Positions 29,490-39,558 of a stretch of DNA of 64,000 bases are shown in pieces. Location of the stretch: the NCBI GenBank assembly GCA_019358985.1, contig JAHHIJ010000011.1, positions 62,001 to 126,000 of the forward strand, written 5' to 3'. This DNA is from Tolypothrix brevis GSE-NOS-MK-07-07A (GTDB lineage Bacteria; Cyanobacteriota; Cyanobacteriia; Cyanobacteriales; Nostocaceae). The notes below the pieces were generated by a model. That model had not been told where the DNA came from. It did not search any database and saw only the letters and a list, made by a program, of their open reading frames with translations. A program made the position numbers and the translations under genes. How positions within the stretch are numbered: position 1 is the stretch's first letter; the number at the start of each line of letters is the position of its first letter.

Positions 29490-30737
29490 TCAAGCCCGGT
29501 CAACTCCGTAGTTTTCCTGACATAGCGTACTAGAAACCTCAGTCCCTAGTCCGGCAATATCTCGCAATGCCTTAAGGAAAATCCCTAAAGCGCCATTCCA
29601 ATCTCTAGGAAGTTGATGCCCACATTCGGGACACTTAAACTTCTTAGAACTGCCTAATTTAACGTGTACGTGACCACATTTGGTGCAAGTCTTGGAAGTG
29701 TATTCCTCTGTGACATCTAATACAGTACAACCACGTTTAAAGGCTTGGAATTTTAAGGTTTGTTTAAACCGATAATGCGACCAACGCAGCATTTGACGAA
29801 CGGTTTTAGAATTAATCTTTCTTTTTTTCTTACCTGTTTTGGCTACCATTTGGGAAGTCTCAAAAGTTGGAAGAAAGATAACTCTGTACTCCGTCGTTAA
29901 CCATTTAGATACTTTCTTGTGACACTCATCAATTAGATTGCAAACACGAATAAATAAACTATCAATTTTCCCTTGCACCTTTTGACGTTGGTGTTTATTC
30001 TTGCGTCCTGTTAGCTTAGTTTTACGAGATATTAATTTATCGGTAAAGCGACACAACCTGTATATTTTCGTAATGTCTCTATTTCCAATATCAATAAACT
30101 TCTCCCCGTCAAATCCAGTCAGGAATGACCTGACTCCTGGGTCAAGCGCTATTATGGTTTGTTTATCTGATGTTTGAGGTATAAACTTAACAGGTAATAC
30201 AGCAAACCAGCGCTTCTTGTCATAAACTAATTGAGTTGAGGCATCCCATGAGAAAACACGGTCATGGGTTTTAAATGATTTATCTTTTTGCTTAATTTGA
30301 TATTGAATATCCGCCTGTGGTAATGGCTCAGAAGCTTTAAACTCTAAACCTTTTACCTCAGTTGGATACCAAGTACCATTTGAATAATTCTCAGGTTGAA
30401 ATTTAATTGCACGATGAGCATCTCTCCAACTTCTAAACCTGCCTGCACAAAGCTGTTTAGTTCCAGATTTGAGACTGTCAATAAAAGCTTTATGAGCGTC
30501 TAAAACGGCTTCACCTTTTGGATTGTAAGGACATTCTTTAACCCAATCAGGAGCCTTATTAAGTATTAATTTCCTCAAATCATATTTAGATATTTTTCCA
30601 TGTTTTCTCAAATAGGCAATACTTTGATTAAAGCAATACTTAGTCGCTGCTAACCATTTTTTCCAGATTTGATGGAGTTTCTCTTCTGGGTAAATTCTGA
30701 TCTTTAGCGATTTCAGATTTGTATTTTCGTAATCCAT
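29490..30737 (-). CDS. tnpB: TnpB, RNA-guided nuclease of the IS607 element
   Basis: The 415-residue protein starts at the ATG at 30737. Frame continues 169 codons further upstream but that part only shadows tnpA. TnpB proteins are RuvC-type nucleases guided by an RNA made from the element end; they cut targets next to a short motif and help the element persist. The RuvC triad is present: Asp199 (IALDPGVRS), Glu293 (PTFETSQ) and Asp379 (RDWNGA). A CX2C…CX2C zinc ribbon (CTKCG…CPECG) lies just before the last Asp. The family's usual RDxNAA reads RDWNGA here. It ends only about 28 nt from the proposed right end, consistent with a guide RNA overlapping the 3' end. Confidence 0.93.
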   Translation of the reverse strand: MDYENTNLKSLKIRIYPEEKLHQIWKKWLAATKYCFNQSIAYLRKHGKISKYDLRKLILNKAPDWVKECPYNPKGEAVLDAHKAFIDSLKSGTKQLCAGRFRSWRDAHRAIKFQPENYSNGTWYPTEVKGLEFKASEPLPQADIQYQIKQKDKSFKTHDRVFSWDASTQLVYDKKRWFAVLPVKFIPQTSDKQTIIALDPGVRSFLTGFDGEKFIDIGNRDITKIYRLCRFTDKLISRKTKLTGRKNKHQRQKVQGKIDSLFIRVCNLIDECHKKVSKWLTTEYRVIFLPTFETSQMVAKTGKKKRKINSKTVRQMLRWSHYRFKQTLKFQAFKRGCTVLDVTEEYTSKTCTKCGHVHVKLGSSKKFKCPECGHQLPRDWNGALGIFLKALRDIAGLGTEVSSTLCQENYGVDRA

Positions 30738-31257
30738 ACAATCTTGCTGAGAAACAATGGAGGATTGCAAGGATGTCCTCAACCATTTCTTCCTGGGGAG
30801 ATAGCTCAACTTGGTTGAGAACCACGATTTCGCAAGAGTTTTGGGAACAGAGCCAAGCGAAAAAGTCGAAGCCAAATCTAGCGAATCGATCTTTATATGC
30901 GATAACAATGCGCTCGATATCTCCTGACATAACTCGTTCCAATAGGGCAAGAAACTTCTTTCTTTTGTAGTTAAGACCTCCGCCAATTTCTGCGACAACT
31001 TCTGCTGTAACGTATTTAGATTGGAGATAATCACATTGACGTTGTAAGTTTTCTCGTTGCTTGGGACTTGAGACTCTGGCGTAAATAACGGTACGTCGAA
31101 CAGACTTAGTTGTAAATCCTGTGATGTCGTAACGTCTTTTGCCTCCCGGAGTACGGAACGCTTGGATTTGACCCGCTTCTTCCCAACGTCGGAGGGTTCG
31201 TTCGTTAACCCCAAGAGTTCTAGCAGCGTCGCCTGGTGTGACATACTTATCGGACAT
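30640..31257 (-). CDS. tnpA: TnpA, serine recombinase of IS607 type
   Basis: The 205-residue protein has an N-terminal MerR-type helix-turn-helix (residues 5-45, TPGDAARTLGVNERTLRRWEEAGQI) followed by a resolvase domain with the nucleophile Ser63 in YARVSS. This order is the signature of IS607 transposases, which use a serine covalent intermediate and need little target specificity. It overlaps tnpB by about 98 nt, in a different frame. All catalytic-region motifs (YKDRFARFG) are present, so the element may be active. Confidence 0.94.
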   Translation of the reverse strand: MSDKYVTPGDAARTLGVNERTLRRWEEAGQIQAFRTPGGKRRYDITGFTTKSVRRTVIYARVSSPKQRENLQRQCDYLQSKYVTAEVVAEIGGGLNYKRKKFLALLERVMSGDIERIVIAYKDRFARFGFDFFAWLCSQNSCEIVVLNQVELSPQEEMVEDILAILHCFSARLYGLRKYKSEIAKDQNLPRRETPSNLEKMVSSD

Positions 31258-34757: not shown

Positions 34758-36146
34758 TTACTTCTCAAATGGCAAAGATGGGGAGGAACTCTTAGGATAT
34801 ATTGCCAAATCGGTTTCCGGGTCAAAAAAGTGGATTTTATCTGGTGTCAGCGATAACCACAATTGTTCACCAATACGTACAGTGCGATCGCTTGGAACTC
34901 GCACTTGCAGGTAATTGTTTGTATAAGTGGTTTGATCTGGTTCGACAAGTTTGACAGCAAGATAAGTGTCGTTACCCAAGTTTTCCACCAAGTCCACTTC
35001 CACTTGCAGATTTTTGGTTGCAGGTAAACTTATACTTAAGTGTTCTGGGCGAATACCCAAAATTAAAGTTTGCCCGTCGTATTTTTGTAACGCAGTTGCC
35101 CAAGCTTCTGGTAAGGTTAGACGAAACTGAGAATGAGTAATTACCTGGGGAGCTTGAAATTTGACAGGTATAAAATTCATTGGCGGCGAACCGATGAATT
35201 CTGCAACAAAACGAGTTGCTGGATGGTTGTATAATTCCAATGGAGCAGCAACTTGCTGAATTTGCCCTTGATTCATAATGGCAATGCGATCGCCCATTGT
35301 CATCGCTTCAGTTTGGTCGTGGGTAACATAAATTGTCGTTGTACCCAGCTGACGTTGTAATTTGACAATTTGAGCGCGAGTTTCTGCCCGCAGTTTCGCA
35401 TCTAAATTAGAAAGCGGTTCATCCATTAAGAATACTTGCGGATTGCGAGCGATGGCTCGTCCTAATGCTACCCGTTGTCTTTGTCCACCAGATAACTGTT
35501 TGGGTAAGCGATTTAACAATCCTTCCATTTGTAATAAATTGGCTACATAACGCACCTGTTCGTTCACTGCCCTTTCTTTCTCAGAAATATACTGTAGTCC
35601 TTTCGGTAATTTTCGCGTCACACCTACTAGGAGATTTTCCGCCCAATTCCGCAGATGGGGAGAGGGGGAGAGGGGGGGATGGGGGGATGGGGGGAAAGAA
35701 GAATTATTCTCTTTGTCTCCTTGTCTCCTTGTCTCCTTGTCTCCAAGGAGTCCCCCTCCTCCCCTCCGTCGCAACCCAAAAGCGATATTATCGTACACCG
35801 TCATGTGCGGATAAAGGGCGTAATTTTGAAACACCATTGCGATGTCTCGCTCTTTGGGAGGAAGATCATTAACTAAGCGATCGCCTACTGAAATATTACC
35901 ACCAGTCATCGCTTCTAACCCCGCAATTAAGCGCAGCAGGGTGCTTTTACCACAGCCGGAAGGTCCCACCAGCACCATAAACTCGCCATCTGCTACAGTC
36001 AGGTTAATCCGTCGCAAAACGTTGATATTTTCTGAGTGTTCTGGTGTCGCGTCACTCTTGTTTGCATTTTTAGTTTGTGAAACAACATTTTCCCCTTTGC
36101 GAGGGGGAAAACTTTTATAAACATTTTCTAAAAGAACTTGCGCCAC
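34758..36146 (-). CDS. Sugar/glycerol-3-phosphate-type ABC transporter ATPase (MalK/UgpC family)
   Basis: The 462-residue ATPase uses a GTG start at 36146. It has Walker [10 protein letters not shown] (61-69), a Q-loop [10 protein letters not shown], the signature LSGGQRQR (about 217), Walker B VFLMDEP, and a C-terminal TOBE-like regulatory domain (about 335-450, GIRPEHLSI). It would energise import of a sugar or polyol with permeases and a binding protein encoded elsewhere. Family members are about 360-370 residues. Extra length comes from a hydrophilic insert at 18-42 and a repeat-encoded insert at about 130-164 (GDKENNSSF…PPLSPSP) between Q-loop and signature. Confidence 0.92.
35655..35757. 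repeat. GC-skewed palindromic repeat inserted in frame in the ABC ATPase gene
   Basis: Plus-strand GGGGAGAGGGGG units lead to AGAAGAATTATTCT, then (TTGTCTCC)n and TCCCCC. It has the same arm and centre structure as 15987-16075 and 49084-49166. Translated on the minus strand it gives GDKENNS followed by a Pro/Ser stretch, nearly the same peptide as in the hybrid kinase. Confidence 0.87.
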
Positions 36147-36300: not shown

Positions 36301-36397
36301 CTTTCTTTGTATCTATTGACTATTGACTTTAGCGCTCATAAAACTTCCTGGAATGTCTGGAAACTCAGTGTCTTTAGACCTTCCTAGGAAACACGAC

Positions 36398-37447
36398 TCA
36401 AGCGACTTTAGTCGCCGTGGATATTCTCCATGAGCCATAAGATTTAAATTTACAATCGCAAGTTTGCGCGTTTTGAGTTAGTCGTTTACCAGTGTCTAAA
36501 CTGTGTAAACTGATTGTTTTTCTACTTGGGTCTTTCTTTGTCGGTGATTCTTGCCAACCGCCGATATAGCAGAACCCAAATTTAATGTGTTTGACAATGG
36601 AACCGCGTTTAAAACCCGCGCTAATTGTGCCACCATATCTAGAACGAATATGCCCGACAGAGTGCTGTAAGCGATGAAGTTGACGACGGTGAAACTCTAG
36701 CGGTATGACTTCAATTAATTGAGTGTTTTCGGGTTTAATATGTCCGCCCACAAACCAATTAGCTAGCACCCAAGAATCAACACAGTGAGCATCAAACTTA
36801 TTAGATAGCTTGTTTTTAGACTTTTTCAAACCTAAGACTTGACGCATTTCATAGGTGTCCTTACCCGTCCTAATCTCTAAGTTGGCAAGTTTTCCCATCT
36901 CTGAATAAAACCATTTTTTACCAACTTCCAATGGGCTAAACATAACGTTCCATTTTTTTGCACCTTTCCATGTTTTAGCTTTAATATCTTCAACTACAAA
37001 AGTTGAGACTGGAAACATCAACGTTAACCACTTGCAAATACGTAATTTCCATTGCCATCTAGCTTTTGTTGATGGGGGTAATTTTTGCTTATTTACAAGT
37101 CTGTTTTTACGATTTTGTCTACATGGAGTGTTGCGAAATCGTCTAGCGCGTCGCATATTTCGACGAACTTCAACATGCTCTTTTACCCAGTCAACTGCGT
37201 GAGTTTGGATGTTTAAGTATGTATGTGCTTGTGATTTTACGGTGTATCCTTCACGCTTACTCCCAGGGTCAACACCAACTGCTATTGGTTGGGTATTTCT
37301 ATTGGATGGTTCTTGGTTTAATCGAACACAAAAAACTCCTTTTTTAAAAAATGGTGTAGCCTTAAGAGATTTAATCCAACGTTTTGCCCTGCTAGGGGTT
37401 GTTGGCATTAGCGGACGGTTGTTTTGGTCAACTACTGGAACAAACAT
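36398..37447 (-). CDS. isrB: IsrB-type protein (HNH-less IscB relative), RNA-guided nickase candidate
   Basis: The 349-residue protein has the order known for IsrB/IscB. It begins with a PLMP motif (RPLMP, 11-15), then RuvC-I with Asp60 (VGVDPGS) and an arginine-rich bridge helix (95-116, RRNMRRARRFR). RuvC-II with Glu153 (VVEDIKAKT) and RuvC-III with His221/Asp224 (AHCVDSW) follow. Only 68 residues separate RuvC-II from RuvC-III and no HNH motif is present, so it fits IsrB, not IscB. IsrB proteins nick the non-target strand guided by an omega RNA. The last codons run through a hairpin (36402-36415), probably the element end. All RuvC residues are intact. Confidence 0.87.
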   Translation of the reverse strand: MFVPVVDQNNRPLMPTTPSRAKRWIKSLKATPFFKKGVFCVRLNQEPSNRNTQPIAVGVDPGSKREGYTVKSQAHTYLNIQTHAVDWVKEHVEVRRNMRRARRFRNTPCRQNRKNRLVNKQKLPPSTKARWQWKLRICKWLTLMFPVSTFVVEDIKAKTWKGAKKWNVMFSPLEVGKKWFYSEMGKLANLEIRTGKDTYEMRQVLGLKKSKNKLSNKFDAHCVDSWVLANWFVGGHIKPENTQLIEVIPLEFHRRQLHRLQHSVGHIRSRYGGTISAGFKRGSIVKHIKFGFCYIGGWQESPTKKDPSRKTISLHSLDTGKRLTQNAQTCDCKFKSYGSWRISTATKVA

Positions 37448-37645
37448 GATAAATCCTATTGCTAGGTGTATATATCCCTTCGCTACTGACTGCCACAGAG
37501 GTTAAAAACTAGGGAGGTATTCAAAACATGTTTTGAGCTACCACACTCAGACAGTTCAGTCTTATTAGCTAGACACTTGTTTAACTTGATTTTGGGAGGT
37601 AGTTATTTTCCCTCTTGCAAGCCCAGTGGCTTTAGCCCTGGGTTA
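37448..37645 (-). ncRNA. Omega (HEARO-type) RNA of the IsrB element
   Basis: About 200 nt without a gene precede isrB on its strand, as in known IscB/IsrB loci where the omega RNA is encoded upstream. On the minus strand it holds a hairpin CCCAG-GGC-TAAA-GCC-A-CTGGG (37622-37642), a GAC/GTC-rich segment (AAGACTGAACTGTCTGAG), and a second hairpin around TCAAAACATGTTTTGA (37522-37537) extended by GGTA/TACC. Position and fold support the call; exact ends are estimated. The guide would be the sequence just 5' of the first hairpin. Confidence 0.7.
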
Positions 37646-37743
37646 GTGACATATGCTACATCTGAATACGAAAAGTTAAAAAAACAGCTTTAAGCACAAA
37701 AAGCGAACTACCTTTAATTCAAAGGCTTTTAGTAGGTGTGTTT

Positions 37744-38479
37744 ATGGCTGCTAATATACCCTCGAATCCGGTTCAAGAGCCAACCGTTAAGCCGGATCAT
37801 GACATTTTAGACATACAAACTACATCTTGTTGCATTGTTGGTGGTGGGGTGGTCCTGCCGGTGCAGTGCTGGCTTTGTTGTTAGCGCGTCAAGGTATCCC
37901 GGTGATGCTGATAGAAACACATAAAGATTTTGACCGCGACTTTCGGGGAGATACAATTCATCCATCTGTGATGCAGATTATGGAAGAATTGGGTTTAAGC
38001 GATCGCTTGTTGCAATTGCCTCATGCTAAAATGCGCCAAATCAGGATTCAAACTCCTAATGATACCATTACCTTGGCTGACTTTAGTCATCTCAAAACTC
38101 GCTACCCCTATATTACGATGCTTCCCCAGGTTAAGTTCCTGGAGTTCATCATCACTGAAGCGCAAAAGTATCCGAATTTTCACTTAGTCATGAGTGCGAA
38201 TGTACAGGAATTAATTGAAGAAAATGGCGTCATTCAAGGTGTTCTTTATCGGGGACAAGGTGGCTGGCACGAAGTCCGGGAAATACTTACAGTCGGTGCT
38301 GACGGACGTCATTCCCGATTGCGACAACTAGGCGACTTTGAATCAATTCAAACCTCACCTCCAATGGATGTGTTGATGAAATTGTCCGGACTCCGGGTTT
38401 CTTGCGTCTACCCATTTTACGCGACTTGCCGGCGCGGTTGATTGCTTTGGGTGTTTTTCCGGTTCATGTGCAAACTTAA
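37744..38479 (+). pseudogene. FAD-dependent monooxygenase, frameshifted and internally deleted
   Basis: The gene reads ATG at 37744 (MAANIPSNPVQEPTVKPDHD…CCIVGGG), then the dinucleotide-binding motif is broken: GGTGGTGG is followed by an extra GGTGG (about 37840-37852), shifting the frame. The second frame continues as GPAGAVLALLLARQGIPVMLIE to about 38385. The normal C-terminal end (PGFLRLPILRDLPARLIALG) resumes in another frame up to a stop at 38477. A normal member is about 410 residues, so about 170 residues are missing internally. It resembles PHBH/UbiH-type oxidoreductases and cannot be functional. Confidence 0.88.
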
Positions 38480-38856: not shown

Positions 38857-39558
38857 ATGAACAATTGTATTTTGATGGCGGAAATCGTGGAAGATCCGCA
38901 GCTTCGCTACACCTCAGATAACCTGGAAATCAGTGAAATGCTCGTGCGGTTTCCGGGAATGCGCCCGGATGACCCCCCAGCAACCCTAAAGGTGATAGGC
39001 TGGGGTAACATCGCGAAAGAAATTCAGCAAAACTACCACGAAGGCGATCGCATTCTCATCGAAGGACGCTTAGGAATGCATACCATCGAACGTCGAGAAG
39101 GTTTCAAAGAAAAACGTGCGGAGTTGACAGTGCAACGCATTCATGCATTAGGAGCGGGTTTTGATATTAATTCCTCAACAAGAATAGAAACTACTCAACG
39201 ACAATCAGAAATTCCCGTGGCAGCTGCAACAAACTACGGGCAAGTTTCTCCGGTTGTAACTCCCGAAAAAACTGTACCCACTTACCAACCGCAGGTTTCC
39301 ATACCCACGGAAGTTAAGAAAGAGTTTCCCCCTCTTTTGGAGGATGATTTTGATGAACCTAAACAAAGTCCGAAAAATAGCGATCGCAATCCTTATTCCG
39401 CACCGGCACAAGACGAACCTAAACCCGAAGTGAAAAATAGCGATCGCAATCCTTATTCCGCACCGGCACAAAACGAACCTAAACAAAGTGCGAAAAATAG
39501 CGATCGCAATCCTTATTCCGCACCGGCACAAAATGAAGAGGATGATATTCCCTTTTAA
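38857..39558 (+). CDS. ssb: Single-stranded DNA-binding protein with expanded repeat linker
   Basis: The 233-residue protein binds single-stranded DNA in replication, repair and recombination. Residues 1-105 form the OB fold (MNNCILMAEIVEDPQLRYTS…TLKVIGWGNIAKEI…GDRILIEGRLGMHT). Residues 106-165 are a disordered linker. Residues about 167-226 are three 20-residue repeats (core NSDRNPYSAPAQ) that end in the acidic tip EEDDIPF, the docking peptide for partner proteins. Each repeat is a 60-bp unit containing a HIP1 site. The linker is unusual; the rest is standard. Confidence 0.94.
   Translation: MNNCILMAEIVEDPQLRYTSDNLEISEMLVRFPGMRPDDPPATLKVIGWGNIAKEIQQNYHEGDRILIEGRLGMHTIERREGFKEKRAELTVQRIHALGAGFDINSSTRIETTQRQSEIPVAAATNYGQVSPVVTPEKTVPTYQPQVSIPTEVKKEFPPLLEDDFDEPKQSPKNSDRNPYSAPAQDEPKPEVKNSDRNPYSAPAQNEPKQSAKNSDRNPYSAPAQNEEDDIPF
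39355..39534 (+). repeat. Three 60-bp in-frame tandem repeats inside ssb
   Basis: Units at 39355-39414, 39415-39474 and 39475-39534 are nearly identical and each holds AGCGATCGCAATCC. The 60-bp period keeps the reading frame, so the copy number can change without a frameshift. Confidence 0.93.

What the first reader, a model, noticed from the sequence alone, without database searches (positions are those of the whole stretch)
36398..37645. IsrB-type RNA-guided nickase locus with upstream omega (HEARO) RNA
The 349-residue product has PLMP, RuvC-I, an Arg-rich bridge helix, RuvC-II and RuvC-III, with only 68 residues between the last two and no HNH motif, so it fits IsrB rather than IscB. All RuvC acidic residues and the His are present. 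Upstream on the same strand are about 200 nt with strong hairpins and no gene, matching where IscB/IsrB omega RNAs are encoded. IsrB with its RNA is known in only a modest number of characterised cases, so an intact copy in a filamentous cyanobacterium is worth study.
Basis: partly seen in the sequence, partly recalled or inferred. Interest (0 to 1): 0.78.

Follow-up and report, generated by a model that had tools for sequence, protein, structure and literature searches.

The report
IsrB nickase transposon homing to start codons
The locus is an intact member of a known group of small mobile elements that carry an RNA-guided DNA-nicking protein and its guide RNA; comparing about 70 relatives shows that these elements usually sit exactly in front of the start codon of an ordinary gene, which would explain how they can land beside essential genes without breaking them.

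Summary
Observation and interpretation hold. Window 36340-37650 (minus strand) is one 1,311-bp non-autonomous IS200/IS605-superfamily (ISC/OMEGA-type) element. It holds an omega-RNA (37448-37650) and an intact 349-aa IsrB (36398-37447) with all four RuvC residues and no HNH. The closest solved protein is DtIsrB by sequence (4e-37) and by fold (rank 1). The RNA scores below Rfam's HEARO threshold (30.6 vs 83 bits), but its fold is supported by covariation over 54 relatives: 30 of 35 pairs have compensatory changes, 96% of cells pair, 0 of 500 shuffles match.

New here is the insertion pattern. Left ends start GTCA and right ends abut ATGA, fitting the published IsrB motif NTG(A). At 39 of 62 distinct sites that ATG is the start codon of a gene, against 3.5% of ATGAs in the same flanks (p ~ 4e-37); excluding ATGAs inside genes, 75% vs 10%. 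Targets include fabF, leuA, trpS, lpxC; 26 congeners keep the empty fabF site. Some right ends carry Shine-Dalgarno-like sequence. The window copy itself is intergenic, ~195 bp upstream of an ABC-transporter gene. I found no description of the start-codon bias, but key papers were not readable. Activity is inferred, not shown.

The parts
36340..37650 (-). Whole element, 1,311 bp, reads right to left; non-autonomous (no transposase)
   Evidence: Sharp ends in alignment of ~70 copies in unrelated contexts; related genomes carry homologous sequence running across the junction
37448..37650 (-). Left end plus omega-RNA scaffold (HEARO-type), starts with invariant GTCA
   Evidence: HEARO 30.6 bits; covariation 30 of 35 pairs, 0/500 shuffles; GTCA in 65/65 copies
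37651..37670 (-). Predicted guide (flanking DNA, 5'-CGTATTCAGATGTAGCATAT-3'), the sequence the RNP would seek
   Evidence: Position by analogy with characterised IsrB omega-RNAs (20-nt guide segment, PMC9581776); at the insertion site the guide match is followed by GTC, not NTG; no second place in the genome matches the guide's 16 motif-proximal bases plus NTG with fewer than 3 mismatches
36398..37447 (-). isrB, 349 aa: PLMP, RuvC-I (D60), bridge helix, RuvC-II (E153), RuvC-III (H221, D224), C-terminal domain
36340..36400 (-). Right end: hairpin flanked by TTTCC...GTTTCC, ending CCAGGAAGTTTT (Shine-Dalgarno-like AGGA at 36346-36349)
   Evidence: Conserved in relatives at different sites; first 40 nt of the 90-nt right-end query shared (88%) with an IscB-element end in the same genome
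36336..36339 (-). ATGA: target site and predicted target-adjacent motif, host DNA
   Evidence: 71 copies with an identifiable right end abut ATGA; agrees with published NTGA / NTG motifs

Best explanation
The locus is an intact, non-autonomous IS200/IS605-superfamily element that encodes an omega-RNA and the HNH-less RNA-guided nickase IsrB. Shown here: exact ends, an empty site in relatives, no target duplication in the close comparisons, a conserved structured RNA, conserved catalytic residues, and ATGA as the right-hand target. Inferred: a Y1 transposase supplied in trans moves it as single-stranded DNA, recognising 5'-TCAT on the strand opposite isrB. The flanking 16-20 nt left of GTCA become the guide. 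IsrB then nicks any copy of that guide sequence followed by NTG(A), that is, the empty site. The occupied site is spared because the guide match is there followed by GTCA. Nicking helps the element to be copied back or kept. Across the family the ATG of the motif is usually the start codon of a working gene, so insertion separates promoter and 5' leader from the ATG but leaves the coding sequence whole. In several subgroups the right end supplies a Shine-Dalgarno-like sequence, and the host promoter may read through guide, omega-RNA and isrB. The window copy itself is intergenic, about 195 bp upstream of, and in sense with, an ABC-transporter ATPase gene.
For: Protein: PF14239 5e-34, DtIsrB 4e-37, fold rank 1 = 8dmb (model of moderate quality, pLDDT 65), catalytic residues nearly invariant. 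RNA. Ends and empty sites: (fabF site uninterrupted in 26 of 30 genomes of the genus at 83-96%; L152 site uninterrupted at 94% in G708). Start codons: 45/68 distinct sites open an ORF of >=90 aa at the ATG vs 12.4% of control ATGAs (p 1.7e-23); 39/62 are called gene starts vs 3.5% (p 3.6e-37), or 39/52 vs 66/649 when in-gene ATGAs are excluded (p 1e-24). Downstream products match LeuA, FabF, LpxC, TrpS, RimM, NadA, PyrF/E, NifJ, TrxA models from residue 1-12 onward. Independent annotation agrees in two plasmids. Three pairs of sites with the same downstream gene were counted once; the other sites have non-homologous downstream genes.
Against: No expression, nicking or transposition data. The window copy and its 91% sister (L148) are not at gene starts. 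In the window the relatives' empty site is 3 nt longer than the joined flanks. No transposase in the genome was shown to recognise these ends. The right ends of the large Microcoleus-type subgroup lack a clear Shine-Dalgarno motif. The HEARO score is sub-threshold.
Confidence: 0.88

Rival explanations
1. The start-codon pattern is pure survivorship: insertion is blind among ATGA sites and only harmless ones are kept.
For: Insertions in reading frames are clearly depleted (10 of 62 sites fall inside called genes vs 1242 of 1891 control ATGAs), and an intact coding sequence downstream is the expected mark of tolerance.
Against: Among ATGAs outside genes, start codons are still 75% of sites vs 10% of controls. 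Blind insertion with loss of gene-breaking copies would leave mostly intergenic sites.
Confidence: 0.3
2. An ordinary IscB that lost its HNH domain, or a decaying remnant without function.
For: Other copies in the family are frameshifted or internally deleted (L056, L057, L062, L063); IscB and IsrB elements in this genome share a right end.
Against: At least 64 sequences of >=300 aa keep the same HNH-less architecture and the RuvC residues, at 50-92% identity, out to Acidithiobacillus and Poribacteria; the RNA fold is kept by compensatory change.
Confidence: 0.06
3. Domesticated regulator: the omega-RNA/IsrB acts on expression of the downstream gene rather than in element spread.
For: Position in the 5' leader of genes, sense orientation, exact ATG junction.
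Against: Downstream genes differ at every independent site; guides are unrelated flank sequences; insertions are polymorphic between close relatives.
Confidence: 0.05

Closest known systems
Desulfovirgula thermocuniculi IsrB and omega-RNA (PDB 8DMB; PMC9581776)
   Same: Domain order, no HNH, ~350 aa, upstream structured RNA, NTGA/ATGA target motif, same overall fold
   Different: About 29% identity in the fold match; RNA about 200 nt before the start codon here vs a 284-nt RNA with 20-nt guide; a cyanobacterial clade rather than a thermophile
Cyanobacterial IsrBs CwIsrB (Crocosphaera) and DsIsrB (Dolichospermum), PMC9581776
   Same: Cyanobacterial IsrB with tested RNA and NTG motif
HEARO RNA, Rfam RF02033
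   Same: Full-length alignment at the correct position, starts GUCA, in 6 of 12 sources searched
   Different: Score 29-35 bits, below the curated 83
ISC / IscB elements (HNH-containing)
   Same: Shared right-end sequence in this genome; some also end at ATGA/GTGA at gene starts
   Different: IscB has an HNH domain between RuvC-II and III and makes double-strand cuts

Membership tests
IsrB | PLMP domain, RuvC-I, bridge helix, RuvC-II, RuvC-III | tested here: met
IsrB | No HNH domain between RuvC-II and RuvC-III | tested here: met
   67 residues between E153 and H221; guided_IscB model matches only its first half, 90.9 vs cut-off 175 bits
IsrB | Closest to DtIsrB among solved proteins | tested here: met
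IsrB | Structured omega-RNA directly upstream on the same strand | tested here: met
IsrB | RNA-guided nicking of the non-target strand with NTG(A) motif | not testable with these tools
   motif inferred from junctions only
HEARO (RF02033) | Score at or above the curated threshold | tested here: not met
   30.6 vs 83 bits; best relative 34.9
IscB | HNH domain | tested here: not met
IS200/IS605 superfamily, non-autonomous (ISC/OMEGA type) | Subterminal hairpins, no inverted terminal repeats, no target duplication, fixed tetranucleotide target at one end | tested here: met
   (absence of duplication shown base by base for the fabF copy)
IS200/IS605 superfamily, non-autonomous (ISC/OMEGA type) | Mobilised by a Y1 transposase | tested here: inconclusive
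   Y1 genes exist in the genome; none next to any copy fetched and no shared ends found

The most novel reading that the evidence does not exclude
IsrB (and probably many IscB) elements are start-codon-directed transposons: their target motif, NTG(A), is in effect the bacterial start codon. They insert exactly between 5' leader and ATG, may use the host gene's promoter to express guide and omega-RNA, and in some lineages bring a replacement ribosome-binding site, so that even essential genes are safe landing sites.
Probability: 0.5. Interest if true: 0.68.

Novelty: new member of a known kind. Interest (0 to 1): 0.5.

Why it matters
The element adds a well-supported cyanobacterial IsrB/omega-RNA pair with a 54-sequence covariation alignment. 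The insertion-site census suggests why IsrB recognises NTG(A): the motif doubles as the start codon, giving the element a large supply of landing sites that leave coding sequences intact. This makes the question of what selects OMEGA target motifs testable in the laboratory.

Tried and rejected
Rfam at gathering threshold finds no omega-RNA; treated as a model limit, not a negative, after covariation. Solo omega-RNA copies in the genome: none beyond the three isrB-linked ones. Helper transposase: Y1 loci of the genome share no ends with the element, and no Y1 gene lies in any of the isrB loci fetched. Guide-directed jumping to other sites: no other place in the genome matches the guide's 16 motif-proximal bases plus NTG with fewer than 3 mismatches, and guides are simply flank sequence. 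Shine-Dalgarno replacement as a universal feature was rejected: only 24 of 55 unique right ends have a core motif (background about 10%, original leaders 11 of 65). Literature: Weinberg 2009, Kapitonov 2015/16 and Altae-Tran 2021 were not held. From memory, HEARO integration sites were given in the first as ATGA or GTGA, so the tetranucleotide itself is probably known; whether start codons were noted I could not check. Library searches found no such statement.

Full report
WHAT IS THERE. Pfam names it RRXRR (PF14239, 5e-34); the NCBIfam IscB model matches only its first half and far below cut-off. The best solved relative is DtIsrB, 8dmb, E = 3.9e-37 over residues 3-304, well ahead of every IscB. 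A predicted structure, of moderate confidence (pLDDT 65), also has 8dmb as first match, E = 6e-23. D60, E153, H221 and D224 are conserved in 63, 65, 64 and 64 of 65 sequences. There is no HNH domain.

THE RNA. Rfam finds nothing at its curated threshold. With permissive settings HEARO aligns end to end at 37449-37650 with 30.6 bits, and it does the same, at 29-35 bits, in five of eleven related loci. To decide independently, I aligned the region between left end and start codon from 54 copies. RNAalifold gives 35 pairs, 30 with compensatory double changes. 95.9% of cells pair, against 75.7% in shuffles and 31-43% when partners are slid; the covariation score is 0.586 against 0.197 (0 of 500). 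Because the structure was derived from the same alignment, the slid control leans in its favour, but 383 double-change cells against 25-81 is not a marginal result.

THE ELEMENT. Copies in unrelated contexts share a sharp left end, GTCA (65 of 65), and a right-end hairpin that abuts ATGA. For the window copy this gives 36340-37650, with ATGA at 36336-36339. At least ten related genomes align across the junction. Their site is mostly 3 nt longer than the joined flanks, which I take as lineage variation but cannot prove. No target duplication is seen. The genome has one 91% sister (C49), one 90% partial copy (C44) and more distant relatives. No copy fetched has a transposase beside it, so mobilisation in trans is inferred. 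The right end resembles that of an IscB element in the same genome.

THE INSERTION PATTERN. I located both ends in 65 copies and the right end in 71; 11 other distinct loci were truncated, deleted or lacked a recognisable ATGA end. ATGA at the end is partly by construction, since I used it to place the end. What follows it is not. After removing three orthologous duplicates, 45 of 68 sites open a frame of at least 90 aa at that ATG, against 226 of 1821 other ATGAs in the same flanks. Requiring the ATG to be the first of its frame gives 39 of 68 against 68 of 1821. With a simple gene caller on the joined empty sites, 39 of 62 are gene starts against 66 of 1891; leaving out ATGAs inside genes, 39 of 52 against 66 of 649. 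Apart from the removed pairs, no two downstream proteins are similar, so these are separate insertions. Ten downstream products were compared with NCBIfam; nine match equivalog models from near residue 1, including LeuA, FabF, LpxC, TrpS, RimM, NadA, PyrF/PyrE, NifJ and TrxA. Annotated plasmid records show the same arrangement: a DUF1257 gene in Leptolyngbya boryana, and the gene after parA in Stanieria.

EMPTY SITES. The fabF insertion (L112) is the clearest. The joined flanks match 26 of 30 genomes of the genus without interruption (83-96% identity; one further genome, G354, has the same acpP-fabF gap split by an unrelated insertion), and the junction falls precisely between GAAATC and the fabF ATG in the eight inspected base by base, without duplication. 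The L152 site is likewise uninterrupted in G708 at 94%. The start codons were therefore there before the element.

HOW IT MOST LIKELY WORKS. Published IsrBs nick the non-target strand next to NTGA or NTG; two cyanobacterial ones read NTG (PMC9581776). The junctions fit that rule: in the empty site the guide sequence is followed by ATGA, in the occupied site by GTCA, so the RNP would spare its own element and attack the vacated allele. That retention logic is established for TnpB (own knowledge) and is inferred here. Start codons as targets add an explanation for tolerance: the coding sequence stays whole, and in 24 of 55 unique right ends a Shine-Dalgarno core lies at a suitable distance, against about 10% background and 11 of 65 original leaders. 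Expression of guide and RNA from the host promoter is plausible but untested. Selection against gene disruption alone does not explain the excess of start codons over other intergenic ATGAs; transposase preference, promoter use or both may contribute.

LIMITS. The window copy is not at a start codon: its ATG opens 8 codons, and the next gene, an ABC ATPase starting at 36146, lies about 195 bp downstream in sense. Controls come from flanks, not whole genomes. Gene calling was simple. HNH-containing IscB elements seem to show the same tendency, but there I did not place the ends rigorously. The key older papers could not be read, so novelty of the start-codon observation is uncertain.

VERDICT. 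A genuine, intact new member of a known kind. The family-level insertion pattern is the part worth following.

Noticed in passing
window 29490-31257 (-): IS607-type element: serine resolvase/MerR transposase (30640-31257) overlapping by about 600 nt, in another frame, a 584-aa TnpB-like ORF (PF07282, 3e-20). A second RNA-guided element lies about 5 kb from the IsrB element.
   Followed up: partly
window 37744-38441 (+): FAD_binding_3 monooxygenase gene, divergent from isrB, frameshifted near 37845 and covering only about half of the domain: probably a pseudogene.
   Followed up: partly
window 34758-36146 (-): MalK-like ABC ATPase with an in-frame low-complexity insert of about 60 aa ([12 protein letters not shown]...[12 protein letters not shown]) inside the ATPase domain, which looks like an intergenic repeat that entered a gene.
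   Followed up: no
window 38857-39558 (+): SSB-family protein with several NSDRNPYSAPAQ repeats; in L050 a relative of the IsrB element sits at the start codon of a similar gene.
   Followed up: no
L041 and L151: IsrB elements in Brasilonema and Scytonema have the same downstream gene (first 60 aa identical) but unrelated left flanks; cause unknown.
   Followed up: no
L149 (G000:C44:148509-149033): A 90% sister copy in the same genome keeps only IsrB residues 1-175 closely and then runs on in an open frame of largely unrelated sequence.
   Followed up: no
L248 (G354:C387): The acpP-fabF gap that holds an IsrB element in G276 is split in G354 by a different insertion with a 495-aa ORF that looks TnpB-like by eye only, about 26 nt upstream of the fabF ATG.
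   Followed up: partly
L218-L247, L034: HNH-containing IscB elements often also end at ATGA or GTGA at the start of a gene, with GGAG-like sequence before it; ends not placed rigorously.
   Followed up: partly
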